64,000 bases of DNA from NCBI RefSeq assembly GCF_030297555.1, contig NZ_AP028136.1, forward strand, positions 1,302,001 through 1,366,000, read 5' to 3'. The notes below the pieces were generated by a model, which was not told the DNA's origin, searched no databases, and worked only from the letters and a program-made list of their open reading frames with translations. Numbering within the stretch: position 1 is the first letter of the stretch; each line of letters starts with the position of its first letter. Shown in pieces: positions 20,841 through 62,775 of the stretch. Both the position numbers and the translations under genes were made by a program. Source of the DNA: Polynucleobacter sp. HIN5 (GTDB lineage Bacteria; Pseudomonadota; Gammaproteobacteria; Burkholderiales; Burkholderiaceae).

Positions 20841-21060
20841 AGCCGATAGTTTATTAGCCTACCATTTAGGACTCTTGAATTCCTGAATATATTTGCATTA
20901 AAACTAGGGAAAACCTTAATCCCAGGACATCCTCTGGGTTATATCATTATGACTAATAGGTATTAAATAGATGAGACATTCCCCAAAAAATTGCCTATCC
21001 ATCATTTAATATCACAAAAGCTTTTTGTTGTTCGCATGAAAACCAATGGAGATTATCAAA
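20841..21060. other. Divergent intergenic region between the glycosyltransferase and the sulfide dehydrogenase pair
   Basis: A 220-base AT-rich gap without a gene. It contains the element CTAGGGAAAACCTTA (20904-20918) and, directly after it, an inverted repeat CCCAG-N8-CTGGG (20921-20938). Promoters for both flanking transcription units must lie here. No TGT-N12-ACA site is seen. Confidence 0.6.
20904..20918. promoter_or_regulatory. Recurring element CTAGGGAAAACCTTA
   Basis: Nearly identical to the element before bchO (56432-56446), differing in one base, and related to those before bchF/aerR, bchC/crtF and bchH. It lies between the ArnT-like gene and the cytochrome c gene. It suggests that one of these units shares a regulator with the photosynthesis genes. 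Regulator unknown. Confidence 0.5.
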
Positions 21061-21399
21061 ATGCACTTTCCATCTGCACATAAGCTCAAAGTCATGGGGC
21101 TTAGCATCGGCACCTTAGGTCTACTATCTCTTAGTAGCTTGGCGGTTAGCCAAACCAGTCCAGCCAATATCAATCAACTTTCCTTGGCGGCTACCTGCGC
21201 CAATTGCCATGGCACGAATGGGGTTGGCGTTCCAAATGCAGGGATGCCACAAATTAATCATTTAACGCCCGATGCGATGTTGACTCAACTCAAAGCCTTT
21301 AAGAGCGGTGCTCGTTCGGGAACGATCATGCACCAATTAACTAAAGGCTATACCGATGAGCAACTCCAAACCATTGCCAATGTGCTTGGCAAAAAATAA
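21061..21399 (+). CDS. fccA: Monohaem cytochrome c, putative sulfide dehydrogenase cytochrome subunit
   Basis: A small exported c-type cytochrome. Signal sequence (about residues 8-31, ending LAVSQ), one haem-binding motif CANCH, and a distal Met probably in IMHQLTKGY or GMPQINHL. The start at 21061 is favoured because GGAG lies nine bases upstream; an ATG at 21046 has no such site. The next gene, 14 bases on, encodes the flavoprotein of a flavocytochrome c, so this should be its electron-accepting partner in the periplasm. It has one haem, like the Chlorobium and SoxE-type subunits rather than the dihaem Allochromatium form. Confidence 0.8.
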   Translation: MHFPSAHKLKVMGLSIGTLGLLSLSSLAVSQTSPANINQLSLAATCANCHGTNGVGVPNAGMPQINHLTPDAMLTQLKAFKSGARSGTIMHQLTKGYTDEQLQTIANVLGKK

Positions 21400-21413
21400 T
21401 TGAGGATAAAAAA

Positions 21414-22691
21414 ATGGATCGTCGTCACTTTCTAGGTGTTAGTTCAGCTGCTTCTCTCGGTGTGTTAGCTGGTTGCGCAAGCAGTCCTCCTGTCAATATC
21501 AGCAAAGCCAATGTGGTGGTCGTTGGCGGTGGTTATGGTGGAGCAACAGCCGCTAAGTATGTGCGGATGTTCTCAAACAATACTGCTCAAGTTACCTTAA
21601 TTGAACCCAATCCTGAGTTCATTTCTTGCCCATTGTCGAACCTAGTCGTTGGTGGCCACACCACCATTGCCAATATCTCGACCCCCTATGACAACTTAAC
21701 AAAGCGTCACGGCATTAAGATTGTGAAGGATATGGTGGCCTCCATTGATCCGAAGCAAAAGACTATTCGTCTTGCCTCTGGCGGCTCAATGAAGTATGAC
21801 AAGCTCATCCTATCACCTGGTATTGGTCTCATGATGGATACCATCAAAGGCTTGGATAAGGCTAACCAAGAAGGGGTTACGGTCCAAGCATGGAAAGCGG
21901 GCGCTGAAACCGTCTTGCTTCGCAAACAACTGGAGTCCATGAAAGATGGTGGCGTTTATGCCATCTCCATTCCGATGGCACCGTATCGCTGCCCTCCCGG
22001 ACCTTATGAGCGGGCCTGCCAAGTCGCCAGTTACTTTAAGCAATTTAAGCCAAAATCCAAGGTATTAATCTTGGATGCCAACGATGACGTGACCTCCAAA
22101 GGTGGCCTATTTAAGAAAGCCTGGGCGTCGATGTACCCCGGCATGATTGAATACCGTCCCAAGCACAACGTGATTGCAATTGATTCCAAGACTAAAACAC
22201 TGAAATTTGATGTTCAGGATGATGTCAAGGCTGACGTTCTAAACGTACTTCCTCTCATGCGCGCTGGTGACATTGCCATAAAGACTGGCATAGCCAACTC
22301 GAATGCCCGGTGGGTGAATGTCAATTACATCAATTTTGAATCCACTGCCGCCAAAGACATTCATGTTCTTGGTGACTCGATTCAGGTTGCGCCACTCATG
22401 CCTAAATCAGGCCATATGGCGAACTCGCATGCAAAGGTTGCGGCAGCGGCTGTGGTTGCTGAGCTCGGTGGCTTTGAAATTAATCAAGCGCCTGTGCTCA
22501 CCAATACCTGTTATAGCTTCGTTAATGCCGATGAGGTGGTTCACGTTGCTAGCGTCCATCAGTACGATGCCAAAGATAAGACCTTCAAGACCGTTCCCGG
22601 CTCCGGCGGTCTATCACCAGCCCCGACTAAGCTCGAGGGAGTCTATGCCTGGGGTTGGGCTCGCAACATTTGGGCAGACAGCCTGGGTTAA
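21414..22691 (+). CDS. fccB: Flavocytochrome c sulfide dehydrogenase, flavoprotein subunit
   Basis: Oxidises sulfide with FAD and passes electrons to the cytochrome encoded just upstream. It starts with a Tat-type signal (MDRRHFLGVSSAASLGVLAGC), then the FAD dinucleotide fold VVVVGGGYGGATAAKYVR. The two redox-active Cys regions are visible: EFISCPLSNLVVGG and YRCPPGPYERACQ. The C-terminal FCSD-type domain (VLTNTCYSFVNADEVVHVASVHQYD, ending VYAWGWARNIWADSLG) is present. Length 425 is normal. It sits directly next to the photosynthesis cluster. SoxF is an alternative name for the same family. Confidence 0.88.
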   Translation: MDRRHFLGVSSAASLGVLAGCASSPPVNISKANVVVVGGGYGGATAAKYVRMFSNNTAQVTLIEPNPEFISCPLSNLVVGGHTTIANISTPYDNLTKRHGIKIVKDMVASIDPKQKTIRLASGGSMKYDKLILSPGIGLMMDTIKGLDKANQEGVTVQAWKAGAETVLLRKQLESMKDGGVYAISIPMAPYRCPPGPYERACQVASYFKQFKPKSKVLILDANDDVTSKGGLFKKAWASMYPGMIEYRPKHNVIAIDSKTKTLKFDVQDDVKADVLNVLPLMRAGDIAIKTGIANSNARWVNVNYINFESTAAKDIHVLGDSIQVAPLMPKSGHMANSHAKVAAAAVVAELGGFEINQAPVLTNTCYSFVNADEVVHVASVHQYDAKDKTFKTVPGSGGLSPAPTKLEGVYAWGWARNIWADSLG

Positions 22692-22710
22692 TCAACCACC
22701 TGCCTTTGGA

Positions 22711-22741
22711 AAAGCCAAGCAATTCTGCTTGGCTTTTTTAT
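22711..22741 (+). terminator. Rho-independent terminator after the sulfide dehydrogenase genes
   Basis: The arms AAGCCAAGC and GCTTGGCTT, with loop AATTCT, are followed by a T run. It separates the sulfide dehydrogenase operon from the convergent end of the photosynthesis operon at tspO. The opposite strand also has a short T tract, so it may act in both directions. Confidence 0.9.
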
Positions 22742-23238
22742 TAGCCCCGACCGAATGGGCCATTTAATTGAATCGTGGTCCAGTTAAGAAGCATAGCCAC
22801 CGACACCCAGGCGAGGTATGGCAGCATCAAGAGGCTTGAGATGGGTGAGTATGAGCGGGTAGCGAGCACAATCGCTAATACCGAGAGCCATAGCCCAACC
22901 GCTTCAATCAAAGCCCAATCTGGTCGCTGCATCCGAAAATAAAGCACGCTCCAGATGAAATTGAATAGGCCATTCACGATGAAGAGAATGACCAACATGC
23001 GAATAGTTTCTTGATTGGGCGCGCGATGATACGCCATCACGAATGCAGCACCTGCAAGAATAAAAATGGTGGACCACATGGGACCAAATACCCAATCGGG
23101 CGGTTTCCAGGCCGGCTGCTGGAGGCTTTTGTACCACTCACCAATATCGGTTGCCCATGCTCCAGCTAATGCAAGTACTAAACCCCAAACAACAGCAAAA
23201 ATGATTGGCTTATAGTGCGCAAACCATTCTGCACTCAT
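22741..23238 (-). CDS. tspO: TspO/MBR family tryptophan-rich sensory protein
   Basis: An outer- or cell-membrane protein with five helices, related to mitochondrial translocator protein and known in Rhodobacter to bind porphyrins and modulate photosynthesis gene expression. Family marks: the Trp/Pro-rich PAWKPPDWVFGPMWSTIFILAGAAFVMAYHRA, FIVNGLFNFIWSVLYFRMQRPDWALIE and a final VAMLLNWTTIQLN. Length 165. Its ATG overlaps the bchP stop by four bases, so it is the last gene of the long bchF-to-tspO operon. TspO genes occur in many proteobacterial photosynthesis clusters. Confidence 0.93.
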   Translation of the reverse strand: MSAEWFAHYKPIIFAVVWGLVLALAGAWATDIGEWYKSLQQPAWKPPDWVFGPMWSTIFILAGAAFVMAYHRAPNQETIRMLVILFIVNGLFNFIWSVLYFRMQRPDWALIEAVGLWLSVLAIVLATRSYSPISSLLMLPYLAWVSVAMLLNWTTIQLNGPFGRG

Positions 23239-24440
23239 ACCTTCGCCATACCCAAAAGGTGGGCCATGTCTTTAAAGAAGATTTTGATGTGGGCCATGGG
23301 GTCTTTGCGAACTAATTTCTTATACATATACGACTCAAAGGTTAAACGTTGAACGTCTTTATCTTCGCACATTTTGACAAAACGCTCACGCCGCTTATCG
23401 TTGCCGTACCAAAAGCGTTGCATGATCCCCAGAACCAGAAATACTGTACCGTGCTCTTTCATGAAGCGCTTGCGTGCTTGGGCTAAGGCTTTGACATTCC
23501 CGGTCACCAATAACTCATGCACCGACTCAGCCGCTAATCGACCGCCCACCATGGCGTAATAAATCCCCTCTCCAGATGCGGGAGCAACAACTCCGGCGGC
23601 ATCGCCAGCCAAAATCACATCCCGATTGTTATCCCATTTTTTAAGAGGCTTCATGGGCAACGGTGCACCTTCATGACGGAGTAACTCAGTATTTTCTAAA
23701 TTAGTCAATTTCTTGAGTTGGCCAACGGCACTGCGTAATGAAAACCCTTTGTCCGCACTGCCAGTGCCAATGCTCATGGTATTGCCATGAGGAAAGATCC
23801 AGCCATAGAAGTCGGGGGATAGCGTTCCTTGATAAAACACATCGCACCGTGATCCGTCATAACCCTGAGGCGGTGCCTCAGGTACTCGAACAATCTCGTG
23901 ATAAGCAAATACGTAATCGACGTCTTTAGCCCCTGGGATTGCTTGGCGACCTACACCCGATTTCGCGCCGTCAGCGCCAATAATGGTCTTGGCACGAACC
24001 GCCCCAGTCTTCTCTGGCTCCGATCGATTGGCTGAGTGAATTCGATAGTGAACAATGGCAGTACCATCGGTATCGCGTGTGATCTTCTCAAAAATACCAG
24101 TACGACGTGTGGCGCCATCATTGGCCGCACGAACGCGTAACCATTCATCAAATTGATCACGATCGACCATTCCCACAAAGCCGCCATCAATCGGGATATC
24201 TACTTGGTTATTTTTTGGTGAGATCATACGGGCTGAACGGGCTTTAGCCACCAATAACTCATCAGGAATCCCAAAGTCTTTAATCAGACGCGGAGGAATT
24301 GCGCCACCACAGGGTTTGATTCGCCCTGCACGATCAAGCAATAAGACGGTGTGTCCCATTTTGGCAAGATCGCCTGCGGCAGTGGCCCCTGCGGGCCCAC
24401 CACCAACGACCACTGCATCAAAGGTTTCTAGGGTACTCAT
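23235..24440 (-). CDS. bchP: Geranylgeranyl reductase BchP
   Basis: Reduces the geranylgeranyl tail of bacteriochlorophyll to phytyl. FAD-dependent reductase with FDAVVVGGGPAGATAAGDLAK at residues 7-27, the BchP/ChlP signature KPCGGAIPPRLI, and GDAAGVVAPASGEGIYYAM for flavin binding. Length 401. I use the ATG at 24440 because it overlaps the stop of the pucC-like gene (ATGA) and gives the normal N-terminus MSTLETFDAVV; an upstream ATG adds ten unrelated residues. Confidence 0.96.
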   Translation of the reverse strand: MSTLETFDAVVVGGGPAGATAAGDLAKMGHTVLLLDRAGRIKPCGGAIPPRLIKDFGIPDELLVAKARSARMISPKNNQVDIPIDGGFVGMVDRDQFDEWLRVRAANDGATRRTGIFEKITRDTDGTAIVHYRIHSANRSEPEKTGAVRAKTIIGADGAKSGVGRQAIPGAKDVDYVFAYHEIVRVPEAPPQGYDGSRCDVFYQGTLSPDFYGWIFPHGNTMSIGTGSADKGFSLRSAVGQLKKLTNLENTELLRHEGAPLPMKPLKKWDNNRDVILAGDAAGVVAPASGEGIYYAMVGGRLAAESVHELLVTGNVKALAQARKRFMKEHGTVFLVLGIMQRFWYGNDKRRERFVKMCEDKDVQRLTFESYMYKKLVRKDPMAHIKIFFKDMAHLLGMAKV

Positions 24441-25795
24441 GATGATCCTCCACGGGAAATAAGCTGACAAGGGATTGATGATTCAAGCGACTGGGATTTG
24501 GAAATACGTTCAATGGGTCGGATATAAAACGACAGGATGGCAGCAGCCATAAATAAAATAGCTTCAATGAAGAACACACTTGCATAGGCTGTCACTGGGT
24601 CACCCAATAAATAGCGCGCAAGATCGCTTGCTCCGGTCCCTAAAATACCACCGAGACCAAAGGCAATCGCTTGCGCTGCGCCCCAAACGCCCATGCGAAC
24701 ACCCTCGCGACGCTCCCTGCCCATGCCGGCAAACTGCATCATGGAGCCAATCGCTGCGATTGAAAACGCGCCGTTGGATAAACCCAATATAAATACCGTG
24801 CTAAAAAATGGCCAACCGGGGCCCACTAATCCAGACATCACCAAACTCAACATGGCGAGCGATGAGGCAATACAACCGCCCACCGTCCACATCCGCAGGG
24901 ACGATAAATTGGGATTCTTACTTCTACTCGTAACAAATCCACACAAAAGCATTCCACAAAGTACGCCCGCGTGTTGAAGGCCCGATAGGCTCGTCGTTTC
25001 TCCAGGCATTAAACCAAATGCGGTACCTGCAAATGGCTCCAAGATCAGATCTTGCGAGCTATATGCCAACATTGAGATAAAGACAAATACGGTAAAGCGC
25101 CGTACCCGGGACTCTTGCCATACTTCCGCTAAGGCCTCTTTAAAGCGCAGTTTAGGTTCATTGGCGTTTTGTGCTGCTTGCGCCAACGATTTAGGCTCAA
25201 GCCCATGCAGGGCAATGAAGCTGACGACTAAGGCTAAGCACGACACCCCAAGCGAAACCATAATGAGGCGTTCAAAGGAAAATGGGTCGAGTAGTTTTCC
25301 GCTAATCCCCGCTGTCATGGCAAAGCCAAAGATCATCATGAGCCAAACACAGCTTGCGGCGGCGGCTTTGCGCTTTTCGTCCACGCGTTTTGCTAGGAGT
25401 ACCAGTAAAGCCGTACCACTTGCGCTTACTCCTAAACCAATCATCATGAAGGCAATGAAAGCAAGGCTAATACCCCAACTGACATCACGACTCATTAGAG
25501 CTACTGCACTTGCCGCTAACACTCCACCGCTCGCCAGTACTAACATCCCACCCTGAATCCAGGGCGTTGAACGGCCACTGCGATCCGATCCAAAACCCAT
25601 GCGGGGTCGAATAAATTGCACTAGATAATGCATTGCTACTAGTAATCCAGGCAGTAAGGCAGGAAGCGCGAGCTCAATCACCATCACTCGGTTCAAAACC
25701 GATGTGGTCAGAACCACGACTGCGCCTAAGGAGGCTTGTACAAGCCCTAAACGAGCAATCCCAAACCAATTGAGGGTGGTCGAATGTTGAGTCAT
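24437..25795 (-). CDS. PucC-family MFS transporter (orf428/bch2-like)
   Basis: A twelve-helix major facilitator of the BCH2/PucC family. Such proteins help insert bacteriochlorophyll into light-harvesting complexes. Seen: LNWFGIARLGLVQASLGAVVVLTTSVLNRVMVIELALPALLPG and FIRPRMGFGSDRSGRSTPWIQGG, the motif-A equivalent of the family. Length 452. It is the paralogue of lhaA at 30503-31945 and sits between bchG and bchP, the position of orf428 in Rhodobacter clusters. Overlaps of four bases with both neighbours show coupling. Confidence 0.9.
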   Translation of the reverse strand: MTQHSTTLNWFGIARLGLVQASLGAVVVLTTSVLNRVMVIELALPALLPGLLVAMHYLVQFIRPRMGFGSDRSGRSTPWIQGGMLVLASGGVLAASAVALMSRDVSWGISLAFIAFMMIGLGVSASGTALLVLLAKRVDEKRKAAAASCVWLMMIFGFAMTAGISGKLLDPFSFERLIMVSLGVSCLALVVSFIALHGLEPKSLAQAAQNANEPKLRFKEALAEVWQESRVRRFTVFVFISMLAYSSQDLILEPFAGTAFGLMPGETTSLSGLQHAGVLCGMLLCGFVTSRSKNPNLSSLRMWTVGGCIASSLAMLSLVMSGLVGPGWPFFSTVFILGLSNGAFSIAAIGSMMQFAGMGRERREGVRMGVWGAAQAIAFGLGGILGTGASDLARYLLGDPVTAYASVFFIEAILFMAAAILSFYIRPIERISKSQSLESSIPCQLISRGGSS

Positions 25796-27443: not shown

Positions 27444-27449
27444 CGTTTG

Positions 27450-37013: not shown

Positions 37014-37031
37014 TGTAAACCTAAGTTTACG
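37014..37031. promoter_or_regulatory. Near-match PpsR/CrtJ site
   Basis: TGTAAACCTAAGTTTACG is TGT-N12-ACG, one base from the TGT-N12-ACA consensus, with a perfect inner palindrome GTAAACCTAAGTTTAC apart from its centre. It lies 40 bases upstream of the bchF start, where a repressor would block the promoter. Confidence 0.6.
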
Positions 37032-37050: not shown

Positions 37051-37067
37051 CTAGGAATAAACCCTTA
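37051..37067. promoter_or_regulatory. Recurring CTAGG...CCCTTA element (first copy at bchF/aerR)
   Basis: CTAGGAATAAACCCTTA resembles the elements before bchO, bchC, bchH and the sulfide dehydrogenase pair. It lies four bases from the perfect PpsR-type site at 37072. Function unknown. Confidence 0.45.
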
Positions 37068-37071: not shown

Positions 37072-37089
37072 TGTCAAATTATTTTGACA
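37072..37089. promoter_or_regulatory. PpsR/CrtJ binding site (perfect TGT-N12-ACA)
   Basis: TGTCAAATTATTTTGACA matches the PpsR/CrtJ consensus exactly and is almost fully palindromic. It lies between bchF and the aerR gene, together with a near-match 40 bases to the left, as expected for cooperative binding by PpsR, which is encoded at 38181-39596. Confidence 0.8.
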
Positions 37090-37099: not shown

Positions 37100-37115
37100 C
37101 TAGTGGTAAACCTTA
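37100..37115. promoter_or_regulatory. Recurring CTAG...CCTTA element (second copy at bchF/aerR)
   Basis: CTAGTGGTAAACCTTA is a weaker relative of the CTAGGGAAAACCCTA element. It lies eleven bases right of the PpsR-type site. Function unknown. Confidence 0.35.
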
Positions 37116-37258
37116 TGGAAATTGGTCAAAAAAGGAAGGTTTTTGGCCTGCACTAGCCTATTTTTAGTTGGATTTCTAGAAAGAATTACCTAAAAAAAGG
37201 TGCTTGGAGTGCAATAAATATTGCATCGCAACATATGTAAATGGCTTAGGGGTTAAGA

Positions 37259-38155
37259 GTGGATCAATTTAATCTACCGAGAAACGGTAATCAGGCAGCA
37301 GAAGGCAAGGAAGGCCAAACATGGCACAGAAAACCACGCTTCAATACCGAGATTTCCAAAAAAATGGATTCGCCCAGCACCCATGAGCTCACCAATCTAC
37401 TCAACAAAACCATAGAGGCACAAATCATTCCCCGCCTCCTCATGCAACATGGTCTGAATCGTCCTGAGGCTGATTCTAAGAAAGCTGGGATGCCAATATC
37501 CAGCGATGAGGTTAAACACTTTGCCGAATTGCTCATCCATAGCTCAAACGATATTTGCCTTGGATATATTCAAGTCTTGCGTCTTGAAGGTCGGGGCTTA
37601 AATGAGATCTATCTCGACTTAATTGCACCTGCGGCAAGACGCCTAGGTTGCTATTGGGAGCTCGATGAGCAAAGTTTTACAACCGTGACCCTCGCCCTCG
37701 GTCGGGTTCAGCGAATCATGCAAGAACTTAGTCCGGACTTTCGAAATAATGAAAGTGAATACAAGACCCACTCAGGGAAGGCCTTGTTATTTGCAATGCC
37801 CCACTCTCAACACACCATGGGTGTATTGATGTTGAGCGAGTTCTTTATCCAAGCAGGTTGGGATGTCACAACAGTAGCCAACCCCTCCAGCGAAGAAATC
37901 CTGTCGCTATGCCGCGAGCAAGCATTTGATATTGTTGGAATCTCGATTTCATATGAGCTGCAATGGGATGCCATGCAGGAATTAGTCAAAGCAATCCGGC
38001 AATGTTCGGCTAATTCGCAAATTGGGATTATGGCCGGGGGTGCGCTCTTTAATGCAAAGCCAGATTTAATAAATCAGTGCAACGCTGATATCTGTACCTT
38101 GAGTGCCCCAGATGCAGTAATTGCCGCTGAGAATATCTTAAAATCGCGTGTTTGA
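37259..38155 (+). CDS. aerR: AerR/PpaA-like cobalamin-binding regulator (first paralogue)
   Basis: A B12-binding-domain protein related to AerR (Rhodobacter capsulatus) and PpaA (R. sphaeroides), which act as PpsR/CrtJ antirepressors. A helical N-terminal part (IEAQIIPRLLMQHG, LDLIAPAARRLGCYWELDEQSFTTVTLALGRVQRIM) precedes a Rossmann-like B12 domain with HSQHTMGVLMLSEFFIQAGWDVT, keeping the H-x-x-G of the cobalamin motif, and IGIMAGGALFNAKPDL. Start GTG at 37259 with AGGGG nine bases before; an internal ATG at 37364 is an alternative. It lies 25 bases upstream of ppsR, so they are probably co-expressed. A related gene occurs at 61650-62621. Confidence 0.88.
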   Translation: MDQFNLPRNGNQAAEGKEGQTWHRKPRFNTEISKKMDSPSTHELTNLLNKTIEAQIIPRLLMQHGLNRPEADSKKAGMPISSDEVKHFAELLIHSSNDICLGYIQVLRLEGRGLNEIYLDLIAPAARRLGCYWELDEQSFTTVTLALGRVQRIMQELSPDFRNNESEYKTHSGKALLFAMPHSQHTMGVLMLSEFFIQAGWDVTTVANPSSEEILSLCREQAFDIVGISISYELQWDAMQELVKAIRQCSANSQIGIMAGGALFNAKPDLINQCNADICTLSAPDAVIAAENILKSRV

Positions 38156-38180: not shown

Positions 38181-39596
38181 GTGACCAATATTGCCAGCAC
38201 CGCCCACACTTTTGGGCAGTTAAACCCCGAGGAGATTGCCAATCTCGTCGAGGCCTCGGCAGACATCTCACTGACACTCAATTCAGCGGGCGTGATTCAG
38301 AGTATTGCCTTTGGTAACCCAGATCTACGAAGTCCGAATTTAGAAAACTGGGTTGGTAAATCCTGGATTGATATGGTCACGGTAGAGAGCCGTCCGAAGA
38401 TTCAGGCGCTCTTAACAGATGCCAATGAATCCTCGCTCTCACGTTTTCGGCAAATTAATGTTCCAATGCCTGGGGCGAGTGATTTGCCCCTACTCTGCGC
38501 AACACTAAAAATCGGTAGTTCAGGTCAAATCATTGCGCTCGCTAGGGATTTACGAGAAATCTCTCTGTTACAACAACGTCTAGTCGACGCTCAGCAAGCG
38601 ATTGAACGTGATTACACTCGCCTACGTCAACTCGAAACCCGCTATCGAGTTTTATTCGAAATGGCCTCAGAGGCCGTACTCGTTCTTGATGCGAACACCT
38701 TCAAGATTGTTGAGGCGAATCCACGAGCTGCTGATTTATTGAGCGAATCCATTAAAAAACTCAATGGTCGTTCTCTAATTGATTATTTAGCCAAAGGTGA
38801 TCGGATTCAGGCGCAGTCTTTGTTGAGCAAGGTTGCCTATACCAATACCGCCGCTGATTTAAATACTAAATTACTGAATGGCCAAGAGGCATTTTTATCG
38901 GCTGCACCATTTCGCAATGAAAATCAATCTTTGCTATTAATTACGATTAAGCGCTCTGGTGAATTCATTGACCGTCAAGACGCTAGCGCACAATCATTAG
39001 TCATCCAAGCGCTTGAGAATGCACCCGATGGCTTTATCGTGACAAACTCAGCAGGAAAAATACTAACAGCTAATCAAGCCTTTTTACGCTTGATCATGGC
39101 GGATAAGCTCGACCAAATCTTAAATGAGCCCCTCGAGCGCTGGCTCGAGCGTTCGAGCGTCGATTTGCGTGTCATGCTCTCCAATCTTCAAGAAAAAGGA
39201 TCGATTAAGTTATTTGCAACATCGATTCGCGATTCCTTTGGTACCCTGCATCCGGTTGAGATCTCCGCTGTATCAGTCTCTTACCCACATTCCTGCTTAG
39301 GATTTACGATTCGCGAGGTTGGATCACGGATTCGCTCGAAGATCCAACCCGAAGAATCCATTACCCGTTCGAGCGAGGAACTCACGCAACTGGTTGGGCG
39401 TTTACCCTTAAAAGAAATTATTAATGAGACCACTGATTTGATTGAGCAGCTTTGCATTAAAGCTGCATTGGAGCTCACACGTGGTAATCGCGTCTCAGCC
39501 TCAGAGATGCTGGGCTTGTCACGGCAAAGTCTCTACATCAAATTACGTAAATACAATCTGAGCGATCAAAGCAAAGATAGCGACATCGAGGAATAA
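38181..39596 (+). CDS. ppsR: Photosynthesis gene repressor PpsR/CrtJ
   Basis: Transcription factor that represses bch, crt and puc-type genes under oxygen. Layout: N-terminal PAS (about 15-120), a Gln-rich coiled linker (LLQQRLVDAQQAIERDYTRL), two more PAS domains (about 150-260 and 275-390) and a Fis-type helix-turn-helix at the C-terminus (RVSASEMLGLSRQSLYIKLRKY). Cys425 in EQLCIKAALEL corresponds to redox Cys424/Cys420 of the Rhodobacter proteins, but no Cys occurs between about residues 120 and 370, so the usual inter-PAS partner cysteine is absent. Start GTG at 38181. Followed two bases later by crtA. Confidence 0.94.
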   Translation: MTNIASTAHTFGQLNPEEIANLVEASADISLTLNSAGVIQSIAFGNPDLRSPNLENWVGKSWIDMVTVESRPKIQALLTDANESSLSRFRQINVPMPGASDLPLLCATLKIGSSGQIIALARDLREISLLQQRLVDAQQAIERDYTRLRQLETRYRVLFEMASEAVLVLDANTFKIVEANPRAADLLSESIKKLNGRSLIDYLAKGDRIQAQSLLSKVAYTNTAADLNTKLLNGQEAFLSAAPFRNENQSLLLITIKRSGEFIDRQDASAQSLVIQALENAPDGFIVTNSAGKILTANQAFLRLIMADKLDQILNEPLERWLERSSVDLRVMLSNLQEKGSIKLFATSIRDSFGTLHPVEISAVSVSYPHSCLGFTIREVGSRIRSKIQPEESITRSSEELTQLVGRLPLKEIINETTDLIEQLCIKAALELTRGNRVSASEMLGLSRQSLYIKLRKYNLSDQSKDSDIEE

Positions 39597-54077: not shown

Positions 54078-54095
54078 TGTCATTTCTTATTTACA
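54078..54095. promoter_or_regulatory. PpsR/CrtJ site 1 upstream of bchC
   Basis: TGTCATTTCTTATTTACA matches TGT-N12-ACA exactly. It begins three bases upstream of the bchC start codon, so it overlaps the leader. It is one of a tandem pair. Confidence 0.7.
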
Positions 54096-54104: not shown

Positions 54105-54122
54105 TGTAAATATTTATTTACA
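54105..54122. promoter_or_regulatory. PpsR/CrtJ site 2 upstream of bchC
   Basis: TGTAAATATTTATTTACA matches TGT-N12-ACA and is nearly palindromic. Nine bases separate it from site 1, close to the spacing I recall for the Rhodobacter capsulatus bchC promoter, where CrtJ binds two palindromes cooperatively. Confidence 0.8.
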
Positions 54123-54156: not shown

Positions 54157-54183
54157 CTAGGGGTTTCTACTGATGACCCCTAG
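54157..54183. promoter_or_regulatory. Perfect inverted repeat CTAGGGGT-N11-ACCCCTAG between crtF and bchC
   Basis: Eight-base perfect arms with an 11-base spacer. The arms resemble the CTAGGG...CCCTA element at other photosynthesis promoters but with a longer spacer. It lies 82 bases upstream of the bchC start and 41 bases after crtF. It could be an operator or activator site for bchC, or a hairpin in the crtF-bchC read-through RNA. No T-run supports a terminator. Confidence 0.55.
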
Positions 54184-56359: not shown

Positions 56360-56377
56360 TGTAAATATTTTTTTACA
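56360..56377. promoter_or_regulatory. PpsR/CrtJ site between crtE and bchO
   Basis: TGTAAATATTTTTTTACA fits TGT-N12-ACA exactly. It lies 45 bases upstream of crtE and 70 bases upstream of bchO, so it may repress both divergent units. Confidence 0.8.
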
Positions 56378-56431
56378 CTTATCATGATGATGAATATAGT
56401 CAGCTAATGCAAGAGGGTCAATCAATCATAT

Positions 56432-56446
56432 CTAGGGAAAACCCTA
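56432..56446. promoter_or_regulatory. Recurring element CTAGGGAAAACCCTA directly before bchO
   Basis: A palindrome (CTAGGG/TAGGG arms around AAAA) that ends at the base before the bchO ATG and contains the only ribosome-binding-like AGGG. A protein or RNA fold here would block initiation. It is the best copy of a motif also found at 20904, 37051, 37100, 54157 (long spacer) and 62760. Confidence 0.55.
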
Positions 56447-57319
56447 ATGAGCTCCATTAATCGCATTCCCTACGACTGGCCAAACCGCCAAATTAGCCGC
56501 TCCGTCACCGTGGGCGATCTCACCTGGCATGCCCAAATCTCAGGCAAAGGGCCGGTAATTTTGTTACTGCATGGCACCGGTTCCTCCACACACTCTTGGG
56601 GCGAGCTCACGCCTTTACTCAATCAAGAGGCGCAAGTTCTTAGCGTCGATTTACCAGGGCACGCCTTTACTCTGGGAGCTTCAGTGGATTCCTTACGACT
56701 CGAGCAGATCGCAAGTAATTTGATTGCATTGATTGGCGAACTCAAAATGGCATGGCCAACCATGGTCGTTGGTCATTCTGCTGGCGCTCCCCTAGCACTC
56801 GCCTTTGCTAATCTGGCACCCACTAAACCACAAGTCATTATTGGTCTCAATCCCTCACTGATTCCGCCGCCGCCGAGCTACACCCAATTTTTTGGACCCA
56901 TGTTGGGACCAGTCACTAAATCGGCTACTCTGGCATCGATTCTGGCAAAGCTTGCACCGCTCTCAGGCATGACCGATCGATTACTAGATTCCACCAATAC
57001 CAATTTGCCTGAAACAAATCGCAACTACTATCGACGCCTGTTTCAATCCCCTGAGCATGTGCGCGGCGCCATGAACTTTATGGCTTCAGCCAATATTGAT
57101 CAAGTACTCAAAGCAGGTGCAAACCTTCCAAGCAAGTTAATTTGGGTGATTGGTGAGAGCGATCAGTGGGTTCCAGAAAATGGCTTGAAGAAAATCATCA
57201 AGCAATACTTTCCGAAATCAACCGTGATCCATTGGTCAGGCGGTCATATCATGCACGAAGTGGAAACGACCAAGACCGCTGATTTAATCTTGAGTGAACT
57301 AAGAGCGCTTAAGAAGTAA
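56447..57319 (+). CDS. bchO: Magnesium chelatase accessory protein BchO (alpha/beta hydrolase)
   Basis: An alpha/beta-hydrolase-fold protein found with bchID in many phototrophs and thought to help Mg insertion. Seen: ILLLHGTGSSTHSWGELTPLL (oxyanion region), nucleophile elbow VVGHSAGAPLALAF with Ser at about 108, and SGGHIMHEVETTKTADLI with the catalytic His. N-terminal YDWPNRQISRSVTVGDLTWHAQ is BchO-like. Length 290. Convergent with bchD, six bases between stops. Confidence 0.93.
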   Translation: MSSINRIPYDWPNRQISRSVTVGDLTWHAQISGKGPVILLLHGTGSSTHSWGELTPLLNQEAQVLSVDLPGHAFTLGASVDSLRLEQIASNLIALIGELKMAWPTMVVGHSAGAPLALAFANLAPTKPQVIIGLNPSLIPPPPSYTQFFGPMLGPVTKSATLASILAKLAPLSGMTDRLLDSTNTNLPETNRNYYRRLFQSPEHVRGAMNFMASANIDQVLKAGANLPSKLIWVIGESDQWVPENGLKKIIKQYFPKSTVIHWSGGHIMHEVETTKTADLILSELRALKK

Positions 57320-57325
57320 TTGGAT

Positions 57326-59125
57326 TCAGGTGTGCAGGACACCTAAAACCGCTTGCGAGAGTTCGTGTGCGCGCGCATGCGGTAGAGGTAAATAGTACGA
57401 ACCAATCAGTCGGGCAATCTGTTGACCCTCCTCGCGCGCTTGCGGCGAGGTATCAATCCATAAACTGCGTACCTTCATCTGCGATGCTAATTTAGCGGAT
57501 TGCTCCGCATCGATTTGCGCTTGAGTTCGCCCCGGTGTGCCATCACGTGCAATATTGGCGCGGCCATCGGTTAGGAATACCAAAGTGGGGGTCATCCCTT
57601 TTTTGAGCGATCCCTTCGCCAGTGCAAAGGCCGTATCAATCGCAAGGGCTAGTGGTGTGCCGCCACCACCGGGTAGTGATGCTAAAGAGCGCTTCGCTCT
57701 GACCAAGGAACGAGTTGGGCTTAGCAAAAGTTCTGCTTCGCTTCCCCGAAAACTAATCAGTGCCACCTGATCGCGTCGCACATAGCACTCCGCTAACAAC
57801 AACTCAACCGCACCCTTTGCTTCGGCTAGTCGATTAATCGCCGAAGACCCAGAAGCATCAACCACAAAGGTTGTGAGTGTTTGATTGCGTTGTCGATAGC
57901 GCTTGACGCGTAGATCATCCTTGCGAATGAGAATTTTTGGCTGATACGGATTCTGACTACTCTTAAGTTGGGCTTGACGAATCCGCTGCCAGGGTACTGC
58001 GGCGCGCAGGGTGTCCATCAAACTCAGTCGTTGATTGCCAGAGGGCATACCAGGCTTTGAACCCATTGGTCGACCGCGTTGACTGCTTAATTGGCTGGTA
58101 CCTGCCTTGCCAGCAGAATGATTTTTTTGTCGTACCAACGCGAGTTGAGTGAGTCGATCAAGCAGCTCACGAGGGATCGCTGCTTGCGCCGCATCTAATA
58201 CTTGATCTTCAAGAACTTCAGTCTCTTGATTCTGAGATTGAGTCTCTTCTGAATTCGCTTCCTCGTTTTGTTCAGGAGTTGGTTCAGGATTGGGCTCATC
58301 CTCAGCTTGAGTCTCGTCGGTCGCATTGGGTAATTGGGTTGCTCTTGGCAATAACACCAGGGTCACCGCGCGCTCAAGATGTTCTTGGCTGGGCTCTCTC
58401 TCATGCCACTCGAGATCCATGGCTGCCAAGTACCGCGCAGTTCTGACTGTAAATTGCACCGCACGCAAGGAAATAATGCCTAACTGCGCCGCAATTCCGA
58501 CGAGGGCGGCGTATTGCTCATCACTGAGCATGATTTGTTCAGCCCGCTCTTGAATCGATGTGCGATCGAGATCAATGAACTCCGCATCGAGTTTGACGTC
58601 TGGTAGGTCATGCCATGCGATTGAATCTAAATTAATATAAAACGCGCAGCGCTCGATCAATTTTGGATTCACACTCTCGTCCTCTTCAATACTTTCATCA
58701 AGGGCAACTACACCCATGGCGCATGCGATGCGTTCTCCATGTCCATCACGCTCAACCTGAATGGCGCCATGATCGAGGGCAGTCGCAATACGGGCTACTG
58801 TTCCTGCTTCGAGGCGTTCAGCCATTGGCAGAATCACGAGACTTTGATCGCAGTGACTTAAGAGCCCCGGTCGAAAGATTGGCTTACCAGAAATGATGGT
58901 AGCCTCAATATCCAAGCCACCGAGTAAGTTCTCGTCCGAGATACCGCTGGGGATCTTTCGTATGGGTGTTACTAAACCATGATGGCGTGCAAGTTGCTCA
59001 AGTGTTTGTAACCACCGCTCTCGGACAGATCCTGAGCGTGCGTGTACGATCACCCCACCAAACACATGGGGCGCAAGTGTGATTAACTGTGCAACCTGTA
59101 AACAGGTCAACCAGTAAGGGTTCAT
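57326..59125 (-). CDS. bchD: Magnesium chelatase subunit D (BchD)
   Basis: ATPase-related scaffold of Mg-chelatase. The N-terminal AAA+ domain lacks a proper Walker A, followed at about 270-310 by an acidic Pro/Glu/Gln-rich linker (EDEPNPEPTPEQNEEANSEE) and a C-terminal integrin-I/VWA domain with MIDAS motif FVVDASGSSAINR and LVFLTDGRANIARDG. Length 599. It begins three bases after bchI. Confidence 0.95.
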   Translation of the reverse strand: MNPYWLTCLQVAQLITLAPHVFGGVIVHARSGSVRERWLQTLEQLARHHGLVTPIRKIPSGISDENLLGGLDIEATIISGKPIFRPGLLSHCDQSLVILPMAERLEAGTVARIATALDHGAIQVERDGHGERIACAMGVVALDESIEEDESVNPKLIERCAFYINLDSIAWHDLPDVKLDAEFIDLDRTSIQERAEQIMLSDEQYAALVGIAAQLGIISLRAVQFTVRTARYLAAMDLEWHEREPSQEHLERAVTLVLLPRATQLPNATDETQAEDEPNPEPTPEQNEEANSEETQSQNQETEVLEDQVLDAAQAAIPRELLDRLTQLALVRQKNHSAGKAGTSQLSSQRGRPMGSKPGMPSGNQRLSLMDTLRAAVPWQRIRQAQLKSSQNPYQPKILIRKDDLRVKRYRQRNQTLTTFVVDASGSSAINRLAEAKGAVELLLAECYVRRDQVALISFRGSEAELLLSPTRSLVRAKRSLASLPGGGGTPLALAIDTAFALAKGSLKKGMTPTLVFLTDGRANIARDGTPGRTQAQIDAEQSAKLASQMKVRSLWIDTSPQAREEGQQIARLIGSYYLPLPHARAHELSQAVLGVLHT

Positions 59126-59128
59126 GCT

Positions 59129-60148
59129 TTAGGAAAACAACTCATCAAGTGCCCGTTGCACACGCGTTGCTGAGCTCGATTCGTCGAGAGGATTGCGACG
59201 TAAGCGATGCTGGAGTGCGGGTACTGCAATGCGCTTGAGATGATCGCGCGTGACTTTATTCTTTCCATCGAGCGCAGCAACTGCACGCGAGGCGCGCAAG
59301 AGCGTGAGCTCGCCGCGTAGGCCATCGGTACCCAGATGGGCGCAGAGCGTACTCGCATCGTGTAGTAATTTGTCATCAACTTTCACACTCGCGAGTTTCT
59401 TACGCGCACTTGCCATCATCACCCGAATCTTCGCATCTTCTTGATCCCAGATCTTCATGAAGGCCTCGGGGTTACGCTCAAAGGCATCGCGTCGTTTAAT
59501 GATCTCGACACGGCTGGGCATATCCGTTGGAGTTTTGACTTCAACGGCTAGACCAAAGCGATCTAAGAGTTGGGGGCGCAACTCGCCCTCCTCGGGATTG
59601 CCGCTGCCCACCAATACAAATCGGGCGGGATGGCGCACACTTAAACCCTCACGCTCCACCACATTCTGTCCCGAGGCTGCGACATCAATGAGTAGATCAA
59701 CCAAGTGATCGTCTAACAGATTAACCTCATCGATATACAAAAATCCACGATTGGCTTTTGCCAACAAGCCGGGCTCAAAGGCCTTCTCACCAAGTGTTAG
59801 GGCTTTTTCAATATCCAACGCACCCAGCACCCGGTCCTCGGTCGCGCCCAAAGGAAGATCAATGACCGGGACGGGGCGCTGCTCCGTTTTGGGCTTAGCT
59901 TTTGCTCCCGCACCACAAATAGGACAGAGACCTGCCATGGCTTTGGGGTCACAGCCATACGCACAGTCTTTGACAACGGTCATCATTGGTAGCAATGCTG
60001 CCAGTCCACGAACTGCCGTCGATTTACCAGTCCCTCGATCACCCATCACCAAGACACCCCCCACGCTCGGTTCGAGTGCGGCCACCAAAATGGCGAGTTT
60101 CATATCCTCTTGGCCCACAATGGCTGAGAATGGGTAATTACGGGTCAT
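59129..60148 (-). CDS. bchI: Magnesium chelatase ATPase subunit I (BchI)
   Basis: AAA+ motor of Mg-chelatase. Walker A MGDRGTGKSTAVRG at about 35-48, Walker B NRGFLYIDEVNLLDDHLVD, sensor LVGSGNPEEGELRPQLLDRFGL. An insert after the Walker A helix carries Cys residues (DCAYGCDPKAMAGLCPICG), including a CxxC pair. Length 339. It leads the bchI-bchD pair, with no PpsR-type site upstream. Confidence 0.96.
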   Translation of the reverse strand: MTRNYPFSAIVGQEDMKLAILVAALEPSVGGVLVMGDRGTGKSTAVRGLAALLPMMTVVKDCAYGCDPKAMAGLCPICGAGAKAKPKTEQRPVPVIDLPLGATEDRVLGALDIEKALTLGEKAFEPGLLAKANRGFLYIDEVNLLDDHLVDLLIDVAASGQNVVEREGLSVRHPARFVLVGSGNPEEGELRPQLLDRFGLAVEVKTPTDMPSRVEIIKRRDAFERNPEAFMKIWDQEDAKIRVMMASARKKLASVKVDDKLLHDASTLCAHLGTDGLRGELTLLRASRAVAALDGKNKVTRDHLKRIAVPALQHRLRRNPLDESSSATRVQRALDELFS

Positions 60149-60242
60149 GCAACCGCTCCTTCAATAAACTTTAACGATTTATTGCTAAATTAAGGTTAAA
60201 TATAAGGCATCTAACGGGCAATGAGTCCAATTGAGGAAAACG

Positions 60243-60701
60243 ATGAGCGATAACAAGCCAAAAGACATTAAAAACGTGGAGCATCGGATTGAGTCTTGGC
60301 TCATTCCCACGGGCAATCTCTTTGTTTCTTTATTTCATCGAATTGCCTTATTTGCAATCGGGGCGGCTACGGTTTGGGCAGCTGGGATGAGTTTCTTTGA
60401 AATGATGCAAAAGCCCTATGCTTCGGTCCAAGATTTACTCCTTCTCTTTATTTATTTAGAAATTGGTGCGATGGTCGGAATTTACTTTAAGACCAATCAC
60501 ATGCCTGTACGTTTCTTGATCTACATTGCCATTACCGCAGTCACGCGCCTCATTATTGATCTGGTTGGTACGAAGCATGAGGCGGATATGGGCATCTTGC
60601 TAATGGGCTTAACCATTTTGGTCTTAGCGCTCGCCAATGCACTCGTTCGCTATGCCTCTAATAAATTTCCGAGTAAGCCCGATCAACACGGCGGAGAATA
60701 A
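60243..60701 (+). CDS. psiE: PsiE-like membrane protein (phosphate-starvation-inducible family)
   Basis: A small membrane protein of four helices: FHRIALFAIGAATVWAAGMSFF, VQDLLLLFIYLEIGAMVGIYF, VRFLIYIAITAVTRLIIDL and ILLMGLTILVLALANALVRYA. The FIYLEIGAMVGIYFKTNHMPVRFLIY core matches the PsiE family. The ATG at 60243 follows AGGAAAACG. About 152 residues. Function is unknown in general. It sits divergently from bchI and two bases before the aldolase gene, inside the photosynthesis cluster. Confidence 0.82.
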   Translation: MSDNKPKDIKNVEHRIESWLIPTGNLFVSLFHRIALFAIGAATVWAAGMSFFEMMQKPYASVQDLLLLFIYLEIGAMVGIYFKTNHMPVRFLIYIAITAVTRLIIDLVGTKHEADMGILLMGLTILVLALANALVRYASNKFPSKPDQHGGE

Positions 60702-60703
60702 AT

Positions 60704-61432
60704 GTGAGTCCTGCCGAGCGGCTAACGCGGATTGATTTAGCGGCCTGTTACCGCTTATGTGCATTTGAGGGCTGGGATGATCTCATTTATACCCACATCT
60801 CAGCGACCGTTCCCGGCGAGCCCAATCATTACCTCATCAATCCCTTTGGCTACCAGTTTGATGAAATCACCGCATCTAATTTGGTCAAGGTCAATACTAA
60901 GGGCGAGATTGTGGATCCTAACTCACCTTACCGCGTCAATCCTACGGGCTTTGCAATCCATGGAGCAGTGCATCGCGCCCGTCCTAATGCGAACTGTGTG
61001 ATGCATCTGCATAACACCGCTGGGATTGCAGTATCAGCCCAGGAGAATGGTTTATTACCACTCTCGCAGCATGCCATGCGCTTTATGGGGCATCTTGGTT
61101 ACCATGAGTACGAAGGGGTTGCACTCACCGAATCGGAAGGAAAACGCCTTACTCAATCCCTCGGTAAACACCCTGCCATGCTATTGCGTAACCACGGAAC
61201 ACTCACCGTAGGTCGTACGATCGGTGAGGCCTATATGGTGATGGCCACTCTAATTAAAGCCTGCGAGATTCAAATTGCTGCTCTATCGAGTCCACAATTG
61301 CATCTACCCAAGCAAAGTGTGATCCAAAAAGCTGCCGATGAATTACATGACAGCGGTGCTGAAGAAGGAATACTCGAATGGCCTGCGCTACTGCGAATGC
61401 TCGATCGCTTTGATGAGAGCTATAAAGATTAA
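60704..61432 (+). CDS. Class II aldolase/adducin family protein
   Basis: Zinc-dependent aldolase-like fold. Seen: RIDLAACYRLCAFEGWDDLIYTHISATVPG, INPFGYQFDEITASNLVKV, Zn-ligand motif CVMHLHNTAG and a third His in LLRNHGTLTVG. Length 242. Start GTG at 60704 with GGAG upstream. Substrate cannot be told. Members of this subgroup are often of unknown role. Likely in an operon with the PsiE-like and tautomerase genes. Confidence 0.87.
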   Translation: MSPAERLTRIDLAACYRLCAFEGWDDLIYTHISATVPGEPNHYLINPFGYQFDEITASNLVKVNTKGEIVDPNSPYRVNPTGFAIHGAVHRARPNANCVMHLHNTAGIAVSAQENGLLPLSQHAMRFMGHLGYHEYEGVALTESEGKRLTQSLGKHPAMLLRNHGTLTVGRTIGEAYMVMATLIKACEIQIAALSSPQLHLPKQSVIQKAADELHDSGAEEGILEWPALLRMLDRFDESYKD

Positions 61433-61460
61433 TTAACTAAATAACGAATAAGGAACCTAT

Positions 61461-61649
61461 ATGCCCACATTTAATGTGCAAATGTTTGAAGGACGAACGG
61501 TCGAGCAAAAGCGCAACTTTGTTGCCGAAGTAACCCGCGTCACCTGTGAGACCTTAGGATGCAGCCCTGGATCGGTCGACATCATCATCACCGATGTGAA
61601 GAAAGAAGACTGGGCGACCGGTGGTAAGTTATGGTGTGATGCGGATTAA
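61461..61649 (+). CDS. 4-oxalocrotonate tautomerase family protein
   Basis: A 62-residue tautomerase. After removal of Met the N-terminal Pro (MPTFNVQMFEG) is the catalytic base; the basic residue in GRTVEQKRNF and the C-terminal DWATGGKLW also fit. It probably forms a hexamer. Stop abuts the stop of the convergent aerR-like gene. Confidence 0.88.
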   Translation: MPTFNVQMFEGRTVEQKRNFVAEVTRVTCETLGCSPGSVDIIITDVKKEDWATGGKLWCDAD

Positions 61650-62621
61650 TTAGTGCTTTGATTTCTGCAAGAAAAACTCGGCTTGCGCTAGGGCTTCCTC
61701 CGCATCCAAGCCCACAATATCGGCCTGCACTTCCTGTTTGAGCTCGGGTCTTGCATTAAAAATGGGGCCGCCTACCATCACCCCAATCGTTGGATTCAGC
61801 GATTCGGCTTTGAGTAAGTTGATAAACCGATGTAAGGCCGGTAGTTGATCCTCGGTACTGACTGAGAGCCCAACTAAATCGACATGCTGCGTCTTCACGG
61901 CAACAACGATATCGGCTTGCGTTGCCGCTAACTCACCCCACACCTTCCATCCGGCTCTTCGAAAAAACTCTGAAACCATAAAGAGTCCTAAGGTATGCTG
62001 CGATCCGGGCAATGGAACCAATACCGCATGTGGTGCTTGATCGTCGGTGCGCGCGAACTCCTGAAAGAGCGGACTAAAGTCATAAATCAATTGCTTGATA
62101 CGCCAAATACCAGTAGTCACTTGAGTAAAGCTAGCGCTGTCCTCCACCCACATCACGCCTAAACGTCTCGCGACTGGAGCTAATAAACGAAGGTAGATTT
62201 CATCAAGGGGCACACCTTGTTCGTAGAGAGCTTGCACGAACTCAGCGGCTTTCGTTGCATCGTCACGCAATACTAACTGCGTAAGCTCATCAACCCGTAG
62301 GGGATCATTGAGTCGAACATTCATCAGCGGTGAACGATTGGCCTCAATCGCACTGCTGTGAGCCACCAATAGACGTGGGATCACATTGGTCTCAATGGTT
62401 TGCATCAACCAATCCAGATGTTCCTGCGGACCTGCTTTGAGACTTAATGGCTGATTTCCAATATCGACCGCTAATTGCTTGACGCGCTGATCGTGAGAAT
62501 GACTTAGGTTATCTTCTGCACAGGCATCCCATTCAGCCCTTTGGGGGTTGACCTTTTGTTGCTCCTCACTTTTGGAAAATAATTTTTCCTTAATGAGGCC
62601 TGCATATCGCCTTAGAGGCAT
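61650..62621 (-). CDS. AerR/PpaA-like cobalamin-binding regulator (second paralogue)
   Basis: Related to the protein encoded at 37259-38155. N-terminal variable arm (about 70 residues), helical part with IETNVIPRLLVAH and LLAPVARRLGVMWVEDSASFTQVTTGIWRIKQL, then a B12-type domain with PLPGSQHTLGLFMVSEFFRRAGW and IGVMVGGPIFNARPEL. The H-x-x-G motif is kept; the Glu-His pair of CarH-type photoreceptors is absent. Length 323. It is divergent from bchH with a PpsR-type site between, so it may sense light/B12 and tune bchH or PpsR. Which of the two paralogues is the true AerR is unclear. Confidence 0.86.
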   Translation of the reverse strand: MPLRRYAGLIKEKLFSKSEEQQKVNPQRAEWDACAEDNLSHSHDQRVKQLAVDIGNQPLSLKAGPQEHLDWLMQTIETNVIPRLLVAHSSAIEANRSPLMNVRLNDPLRVDELTQLVLRDDATKAAEFVQALYEQGVPLDEIYLRLLAPVARRLGVMWVEDSASFTQVTTGIWRIKQLIYDFSPLFQEFARTDDQAPHAVLVPLPGSQHTLGLFMVSEFFRRAGWKVWGELAATQADIVVAVKTQHVDLVGLSVSTEDQLPALHRFINLLKAESLNPTIGVMVGGPIFNARPELKQEVQADIVGLDAEEALAQAEFFLQKSKH

Positions 62622-62759
62622 GCGTTCTCCGATTTTCTATCTGTGGCGCTTCCATTTAGGCTAGCCAAGCTGCACTGAAAATCAGGCCTATTTTTTGCGT
62701 CGTTGCGTACAGTTTCTTTATAGATCCTTCAGGGGTATCAAGCCATGAATGTTTACTTT

Positions 62760-62775
62760 TAAGGGTTAACCCTAG
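62760..62775. promoter_or_regulatory. Recurring element (minus strand CTAGGGTTAACCCTTA) before bchH
   Basis: Plus strand TAAGGGTTAACCCTAG; the 12-base core AGGGTTAACCCT is a perfect palindrome. Same design as the element before bchO (CTAGGG-N4-CCCTA). It is 95 bases upstream of bchH and 138 upstream of the aerR-like gene. Confidence 0.55.

What the first reader, a model, noticed from the sequence alone, without database searches (positions are those of the whole stretch)
20904..62775. A recurring palindromic element (CTAGGG-N4-CCYTWA) marks the photosynthesis promoters and the sulfide dehydrogenase region
Copies: 20904 CTAGGGAAAACCTTA, 37051 CTAGGAATAAACCCTTA, 37100 CTAGTGGTAAACCTTA, 56432 CTAGGGAAAACCCTA, 62760 (minus) CTAGGGTTAACCCTTA, and a long-spacer version at 54157-54183 with arms CTAGGGGT/ACCCCTAG. 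All lie in control regions, five of six next to a TGT-N12-ACA site. I found no equally good copy inside coding sequence, though I could not scan exhaustively. This suggests a second regulator (perhaps a LuxR/FixJ-type response regulator, a guess) controlling the whole phototrophy regulon and possibly sulfide oxidation.
Basis: seen in the sequence. Interest (0 to 1): 0.8.

Follow-up and report, generated by a model that had tools for sequence, protein, structure and literature searches.

The report
Shared switch for phototrophy and formate
A short palindromic DNA element beside several photosynthesis promoters of this lake bacterium is a conserved control site, and the same site sits in front of the formate-oxidation genes of its relatives whether or not they are phototrophic, so one unidentified general regulator probably ties light use to formate and sulfide oxidation.

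Summary
They recur at the orthologous promoters of five relatives. In seven more diverged photosynthesis clusters of the genus such sites are 24-fold denser near PpsR boxes than elsewhere, matched by 0 of 200 permuted motifs (matrix not blind). The core is AGGGTWWACCCT. Main new result: it is not a phototrophy motif. The core lies upstream of the NAD-formate dehydrogenase (fds) operon in 29 of 29 genomes with an intact fds gene, 13 with PpsR and 16 without. In 13 of 13 PpsR-less genomes with fds given, the fds site is the only exact match (11) or one of two (2); a genome with broken fds has none. Best reading: operator of a genus-wide regulator whose most constant target is fds and which, in phototrophs, also serves bchH, crtE/bchO, bchF/aerR, bchC and sulfide dehydrogenase promoters. 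The regulator is unidentified; a FixJ-like response regulator (kinase-regulator-folD) is the leading candidate, about 0.3. Helical phasing to PpsR boxes was not significant. The long-spacer copy is not conserved as a unit.

The parts
20904..20919 (+). motif copy CTAGGGAAAACCTTAA upstream of cytochrome c (21046) and FCSD flavoprotein (21414); no PpsR box nearby
   Evidence: 16/16 invariant in six genomes
37051..37067 (+). motif copy CTAGGAATAAACCCTTA (N5 spacer) between bchF and aerR
   Evidence: 15/17 invariant
37100..37115 (+). weak motif-like copy CTAGTGGTAAACCTTA between bchF and aerR
   Evidence: 14/16 invariant; not among sites scoring 10 or more
54157..54183 (+). long-spacer copy upstream of bchC; the left part CTAGGGGTTTCTACT is better kept, the right arm is not
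   Evidence: 19/27 invariant
56432..56447 (+). motif copy CTAGGGAAAACCCTAA between crtE (-) and bchO (+); its last base is the first of the bchO start codon
62760..62775 (-). motif copy (TAAGGGTTAACCCTAG on +) between the second B12-binding gene (-) and bchH (+)
   Evidence: 14/16 invariant
37072..37089 (.). PpsR-type box TGT-N12-ACA (bchF/aerR)
54078..54095 (.). PpsR-type box (bchC)
54105..54122 (.). PpsR-type box (bchC)
56360..56377 (.). PpsR-type box (crtE)
62801..62818 (.). PpsR-type box (bchH); its last six bases are TTGACA, 17 bp before TATAAA
21046..21399 (+). small cytochrome c gene, first gene after the FCSD site
   Evidence: PF00034
21414..22691 (+). flavocytochrome c sulfide dehydrogenase flavoprotein
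   Evidence: PF21706, PF09242
36486..36974 (-). bchF
   Evidence: TIGR02020
37259..38155 (+). AerR/PpaA-like B12-binding protein
   Evidence: PF02310; the AerR name is inferred from its place before ppsR
38181..39596 (+). ppsR
   Evidence: TIGR02040
53125..54075 (-). bchC
   Evidence: TIGR01202
55395..56315 (-). crtE-like prenyl diphosphate synthase (below the curated cut-offs; name by position)
56447..57319 (+). bchO
   Evidence: TIGR03056
61650..62621 (-). second B12-binding, AerR-like protein, divergent from bchH
   Evidence: PF02310
62871..64000 (+). bchH, running out of the window (genome 1364871-1368689); name inferred from length and position, not scanned against a family library

Best explanation
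The element is the operator of one genus-wide transcription factor that binds a two-fold symmetric site, core AGGGTWWACCCT (degenerate and N5-spaced in some photosynthesis promoters). Its most constant target across Polynucleobacter is the NAD-linked formate dehydrogenase operon; in phototrophs it also serves several photosynthesis promoters and the FCSD operon. At bchH, crtE and bchC it lies on the promoter-distal side of the PpsR box; at bchH that box ends in a -35-like TTGACA (17 bp before TATAAA), so the copy would be centred near -80. By position it is most likely an upstream activator working against PpsR repression. At fds it sits 25-26 bp (36 in four genomes) from a TTGA-N6-TCAA box of the FNR/FixK type. 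Shown: the sites, their conservation, their association with these genes. Inferred: that a protein binds, that it activates, and which protein. Best candidate (about 0.3) is the FixJ-like response regulator of a kinase-regulator-folD locus.
For: Recurrence at five promoters in six type 1 genomes. In seven type 2 clusters, 20 sites in 11.8 kb near PpsR boxes against 28 in 400 kb elsewhere; 0 of 200 permuted motifs reach this. Six type 2 genomes have a second hemA in the cluster; in G396, G324 and G349 a site lies 35-36 bp from its PpsR box. Exact core upstream of fds in 29 of 29 genomes with an intact gene, in poorly conserved flanks; of 13 PpsR-less genomes with fds, 11 have the fds site as the only match and 2 have one more; G094 (fds broken) and G127 (no fds) have none. 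Genus-wide 336 exact core matches against 89 for the reversed control, in 166 against 71 of 186 genomes. A Rhodoferax MAG has the exact core between bchO and crtE. FixJ lead: the published site shares a half-site (shuffle p 1.9e-4, chosen after the fact); the regulator's best solved relative is FixJ 5xso; a relative was found in 28 of 29 genomes searched, 26 of them at 63-100% identity.
Against: No binding data. With one mismatch the 16-mer is not enriched in G000, and in G339 four of nine exact 16-mers are in coding frames. Four of the five short sites are only at the 81st-90th percentile of conservation in their regions. The half-site matrix was set by hand after I had seen type 2 sequences, so one search is not blind. 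In the 80 wider bchC loci, 9 of 200 permuted motifs give as many near-box hits. Phasing was not significant, p about 0.11. Against FixJ: the regulator is kept in genomes with zero exact cores (G094, G127, G413, G415-G417), and no site scoring 9 or more precedes its kinase in G000 or G339, though G253 has one scoring 9.9. GntR proteins are in 16 of 16 genomes searched, and most other regulator families were not searched.
Confidence: 0.68

Rival explanations
1. Same operator and regulon, but the regulator is not FixJ-like: for example a GntR-family or another dimeric regulator that senses formate or a central metabolite.
For: The arms GGGT..ACCC would suit a GntR-like inverted repeat (recalled, not tested); GntR proteins are in 16 of 16 genomes searched. 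The FixJ-like regulator is kept where exact cores are absent.
Against: No regulator gene was recognised by eye among the open frames around fds in L310 and L311 (not all were scanned against a library). The published FixJ site shares the half-site.
Confidence: 0.45
2. One reading: a regulator dedicated to phototrophy controlling the whole phototrophy regulon.
For: Sites cluster at photosynthesis promoters and the FCSD operon.
Against: The exact core is at fds in 16 of 16 PpsR-less genomes with intact fds. Not every photosynthesis promoter has a high-scoring site. Of the three LuxR-type genes of G000, the 1445282 class has no orthologue among the LuxR hits of G253 and G012, the 1617742 class none among those of G339, and the 1001934 class is genus-wide.
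Confidence: 0.07
3. The element is a second recognition sequence of the PpsR-AerR complex.
For: Close to PpsR boxes; two AerR-like genes in the cluster; AerR extends the CrtJ footprint at bchC in Rhodobacter (PMC5362033, passages read).
Against: Occurs at fds in genomes without PpsR (PpsR in 13 of 398 family genomes) and at FCSD without a PpsR box. The published extension runs downstream into bchC, with hypersensitive sites about 20 bp upstream.
Confidence: 0.03
4. Chance clustering of a short palindrome.
For: One-mismatch matches are as common as for the reversed pattern in G000; some exact 16-mers in G339 lie in coding frames.
Against: Recurrence at orthologous promoters, 29 of 29 fds promoters, permutation control, genus-wide excess.
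Confidence: 0.02

Closest known systems
FixJ binding site (S. meliloti fixK, TAAGTAATTTCCCTTA; PMC4999443, passages read)
   Same: 16 bp; half-site CCCTTA identical; 12 of 16 positions equal to TAAGGGTTTACCCTTA, the best of four copies compared (others 7-9 of 16)
   Different: Here both arms are AGGG/CCCT; targets (fds, bch/crt, FCSD) are not fixK or nifA; no binding shown; no FixL-type haem sensor shown
PpsR/CrtJ box TGT-N12-ACA
   Same: Lies at the same photosynthesis promoters
   Different: Different sequence; the element also occurs without PpsR boxes and in genomes without PpsR
FNR/FixK box TTGA-N6-TCAA
   Same: Accompanies the element at fds in 26 of 29 genomes
   Different: Different sequence; a neighbour, not the element itself
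FdsR control of fds (formate-inducible in Cupriavidus, PMC7057948; LysR family in Methylosinus, PMC3615186; passages read)
   Same: A formate dehydrogenase operon with its own control
   Different: No LysR gene recognised beside fds here (by eye); an AGGG..CCCT inverted repeat is not the usual LysR T-N11-A form (recalled)

Membership tests
FixJ-type operator | Half-site and 16-bp layout of the published FixJ site | tested here: inconclusive
   Shared half-site CCCTTA, matrix score 7.8, shuffle p 1.9e-4, chosen after the fact
FixJ-type operator | A FixJ-like response regulator present in every genome that has the site | tested here: inconclusive
   Relative found in 28 of 29 genomes (26 at 63-100% identity, two at 45-48%); the miss, G402, has 3 exact matches and is in many contigs. 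Also present where exact matches are 0, so it does not discriminate
FixJ-type operator | Binding by a FixJ-family protein | not testable with these tools
   Needs EMSA or DAP-seq
PpsR/CrtJ box | TGT-N12-ACA | tested here: not met
   The motif copies are a different sequence lying beside such boxes
Phototrophy-specific regulon | Site absent from non-phototrophic relatives | tested here: not met
   Core upstream of fds in 16 of 16 PpsR-less genomes with intact fds among the 33 genomes given
Operator of one regulon | Same core at orthologous promoters while flanks diverge | tested here: met
   FCSD site 16/16 invariant against 44% outside, the other short sites less outstanding; fds core kept in 29 of 29
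Operator of one regulon | Fixed helical phase to the partner box | tested here: inconclusive
   17 hand-picked distances, R 0.36 at 10.5 bp, p about 0.11; at fds 25-26 and 36 bp classes, one at 50
GntR-type operator | GntR regulator encoded beside the target | tested here: inconclusive
   None recognised by eye in the open frames around fds; a remote GntR gene is not excluded

The most novel reading that the evidence does not exclude
A FixJ-family two-component system of formate and energy metabolism, resident in Polynucleobacter and perhaps in related Burkholderiales, has been recruited into the photosynthesis clusters as an activator opposing PpsR, so that light harvesting, formate oxidation and sulfide oxidation are switched together under one signal.
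Probability: 0.27. Interest if true: 0.72.

Novelty: new member of a known kind. Interest (0 to 1): 0.55.

Why it matters
What decides when aerobic anoxygenic phototrophs of the Betaproteobacteria make their photosystem, beyond PpsR, is little known (my judgement). A conserved operator shared by photosynthesis, sulfide dehydrogenase and formate dehydrogenase promoters would show how a patchily distributed photosynthesis cluster is wired into a resident energy regulon, and it gives a short DNA bait with which the regulator can be fished out. In the listings of my paper searches I saw no description of this motif in a bacterium; the library holds only open-licence papers, one search listed 40 of 55 papers that hold the core letters, and I opened few of the listed papers.

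Tried and rejected
Helical phasing to the PpsR box looked striking by eye (about 22, 31, 42, 52, 71 bp) but failed the test (p about 0.11) and is not claimed. The hit before hemA (genome 119275) lies in an open frame running the other way, and the five type 1 relatives read CTAGGGGAAAACCCA there; I treat it as coding conservation, not an operator. The hit at 1369303 lies inside the frame downstream of bchH and the one at 364053 inside dnaG. The FixJ-like gene at genome 1445282 was a candidate, but none of the LuxR hits of G253 (three) and G012 (two), which have the sites, is its orthologue. A third possible element, TTGC-N3-GCAA near aerR, was noted, not pursued. A paper search for the core letters gave no bacterial regulator among the 40 listed of 55.

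Rows dropped before counts: G094 (broken fds) and G127, G156, G163 (paralogue only) are outside 29 of 29. In one search two loci (L306, L308) were missed by the start pattern; their sites come. In one search the 17 distances were picked by hand, about one per promoter and lineage; at least one (bchC type 1) comes from a hit under the threshold. 'Non-phototroph' means no PpsR match at E 1e-30; photosynthesis genes themselves were not searched in those genomes.
Full report
What was checked. The window lies in a 1.88 Mb genome of the genus Polynucleobacter: the genus search holds a genome (G422) with the same match coordinates as that of the named P. campilacus record, locus L071. The window carries a photosynthesis gene cluster with bchF, ppsR, crt and puf genes, bchC, crtE, bchO, bchD, bchI and two B12-binding genes.

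Is it more than chance? One-mismatch matches to the 16-mer YWAGGG-N4-CCYTWR are no more common in G000 than matches to the reversed pattern (102+92 against 108+109). Exact matches are five: three reader sites (20904, 56432, 62760), one upstream of a small open frame (728483) and one beside a gene read by eye as alaS (1513052), all outside long genes. In the relative G339 there are nine exact matches, four of them inside long open frames, so this pattern alone is not clean. Because it was refined on the sites, the better test is conservation. PpsR was found in 13 of 398 family genomes, all in this genus. In the six type 1 clusters the sites recur at the same promoters; the FCSD site is invariant at 16/16 positions while 44% of the other columns of that region are invariant; the remaining short sites are at the 81st to 90th percentile of their regions. 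G339 keeps the bchO site with a one-base longer spacer.

More distant clusters. Seven type 2 clusters have partly different gene orders and 36-57% identity to this PpsR. Some of their bchF, bchC, bchH and crtE promoters again show such sites. With a fixed hand-made half-site matrix, type 2 clusters give 20 sites in 11,835 bp near PpsR boxes and 28 in 400,165 bp elsewhere; 0 of 200 permuted matrices reach that. The matrix was written after I had looked at these sequences, so the test is not blind. Six of the seven type 2 genomes also have a second hemA inside the cluster. Four of the six (G396, G363, G324, G349) show a PpsR-type box and a GGGTTTTCCC-like site before it, scored 35-36 bp from the box in G396, G324 and G349; G388 and G392 do not show them. 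In the 80 bchC loci kept the signal is weaker: 13 near-box sites in 10 records, with 9 of 200 permuted motifs giving as many, though none with as high a near/elsewhere ratio. Several of these loci are Polynucleobacter-like. A few Rhodoferax- and Comamonas-labelled MAGs show TAAGGGTTTACCC- or CAGGGTTT-like sites before the PpsR box of bchC, and one Rhodoferax MAG has the exact core between bchO and crtE.

The unexpected target. One off-cluster hit, genome 1273742, lies upstream of a 600-residue NuoE/NuoF-like subunit followed by a 965-residue molybdopterin oxidoreductase, which I read as the NAD-linked formate dehydrogenase operon (fds). A search of 33 genus genomes found the intact gene in 29; G094 has it broken, and G127, G156 and G163 have only a 40-41% paralogue. 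Upstream of it the core AGGGTWWACCCT is present in 29 of 29, 13 genomes with PpsR and 16 without. An exact search of 27 genomes shows how sharp this is. Of 17 PpsR-less genomes, 13 have fds: 11 have a single match, the fds site, and two have one further match. Of the other four, G094 and G127 have none, G156 has one and G163 four, at other places. The ten PpsR genomes in that call have one to six, fds in ten of ten. Totals are 49 matches against 15 for the reversed pattern (counts summed). Over 186 genus genomes the core occurs 336 times against 89 for the reversed pattern, in 166 against 71 genomes.

The fds promoter. Next to the core lies TTGA-N6-TCAA, like the FnrN/FixK box quoted in PMC4999443 (passages read). 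Centre distances are 25 in 15 genomes, 26 in six, 36 in four, 50 in one, and no box in three. The step from 25 to 36 is about one helical turn, but it may be one event in one lineage.

Mechanism. At bchH the PpsR box ends in TTGACA, 17 bp before TATAAA, so the element centred at 62767.5 would lie near -80 (inference; no start site is mapped). At bchH, crtE and bchC it lies on the promoter-distal side of the PpsR box. This suggests an upstream activator whose effect PpsR can veto. At bchO the element touches the start codon, so there a repressing role for bchO or an activating role for the divergent crtE is equally open. Helical phase to PpsR boxes was tested and is not significant (17 values, R 0.36, p about 0.11).

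Which protein. Three LuxR-type genes were found in G000. The FixJ-like gene at 1445282 has no orthologue among the three LuxR hits of G253 and the two of G012, although both genomes have the sites. The gene at 1617742 has orthologues in G253 and G012 (74-75%) but none among the two LuxR hits of G339. The third, next to a PAS histidine kinase and folD (folD by eye), is genus-wide; its best solved relative is FixJ 5xso (E 1.7e-48), and relatives at 63-100% identity were found in 26 of 29 genomes, weaker ones in two more, none in G402. The published FixJ site TAAGTAATTTCCCTTA shares the CCCTTA half-site and scores 7.8 with the matrix (shuffle p 1.9e-4, post hoc). Against it: the protein is kept in genomes without any exact core, and no site scoring 9 or more precedes its kinase in G000 or G339; in G253 one scoring 9.9 lies just before it. 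GntR proteins occur in 16 of 16 genomes searched, and most regulator families were not searched. I put the FixJ-like protein at about 0.3.

Other targets, less certain. In some genomes exact cores also lie beside acetyltransferase-like (GNAT) genes, upstream of a short open frame, and near bchN/bchB at the edge of two type 2 clusters. Only two of these acetyltransferases were confirmed by a family scan; the rest is by eye, and none of it was tested statistically.

Verdict. The element is most likely an operator of a second regulator, but that regulator belongs to general metabolism, with fds as its most constant target, and photosynthesis and sulfide oxidation as added targets in phototrophs.

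Noticed in passing
window 61650-62621 and 37259-38155: Two AerR-like B12-binding proteins in one photosynthesis cluster, one divergent from bchH and one before ppsR.
   Followed up: partly
window 37221-37231: A TTGC-N3-GCAA element (AATATTGCATCGCAACATA) 38-41 bp before aerR in all six type 1 genomes; a similar one before bchF in G253.
   Followed up: partly
window 37014-37031: TGTAAACCTAAGTTTACG, a near-PpsR box missed by the strict TGT-N12-ACA pattern.
   Followed up: no
L280-L308, fds upstream regions: TTGA-N6-TCAA box 25, 26, 36 or 50 bp from the core in 26 of 29 genomes.
   Followed up: partly
L048-L065 (six type 2 clusters): Six of seven type 2 genomes carry a second hemA in the cluster; four of the six show a PpsR-type box and a motif-like site before it.
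   Followed up: partly
L014:2300-2500; L346:2537-2728: The core lies before short open frames, apparently with related stretches (AWSEAR and AWAEAK, read by eye), in G000 and G396, and beside acetyltransferase-like genes in several genomes.
   Followed up: no
G501 and G538 (genus search): Two 3.1 Mb genus genomes have nine and six exact cores, above the usual one to three; context not read.
   Followed up: no
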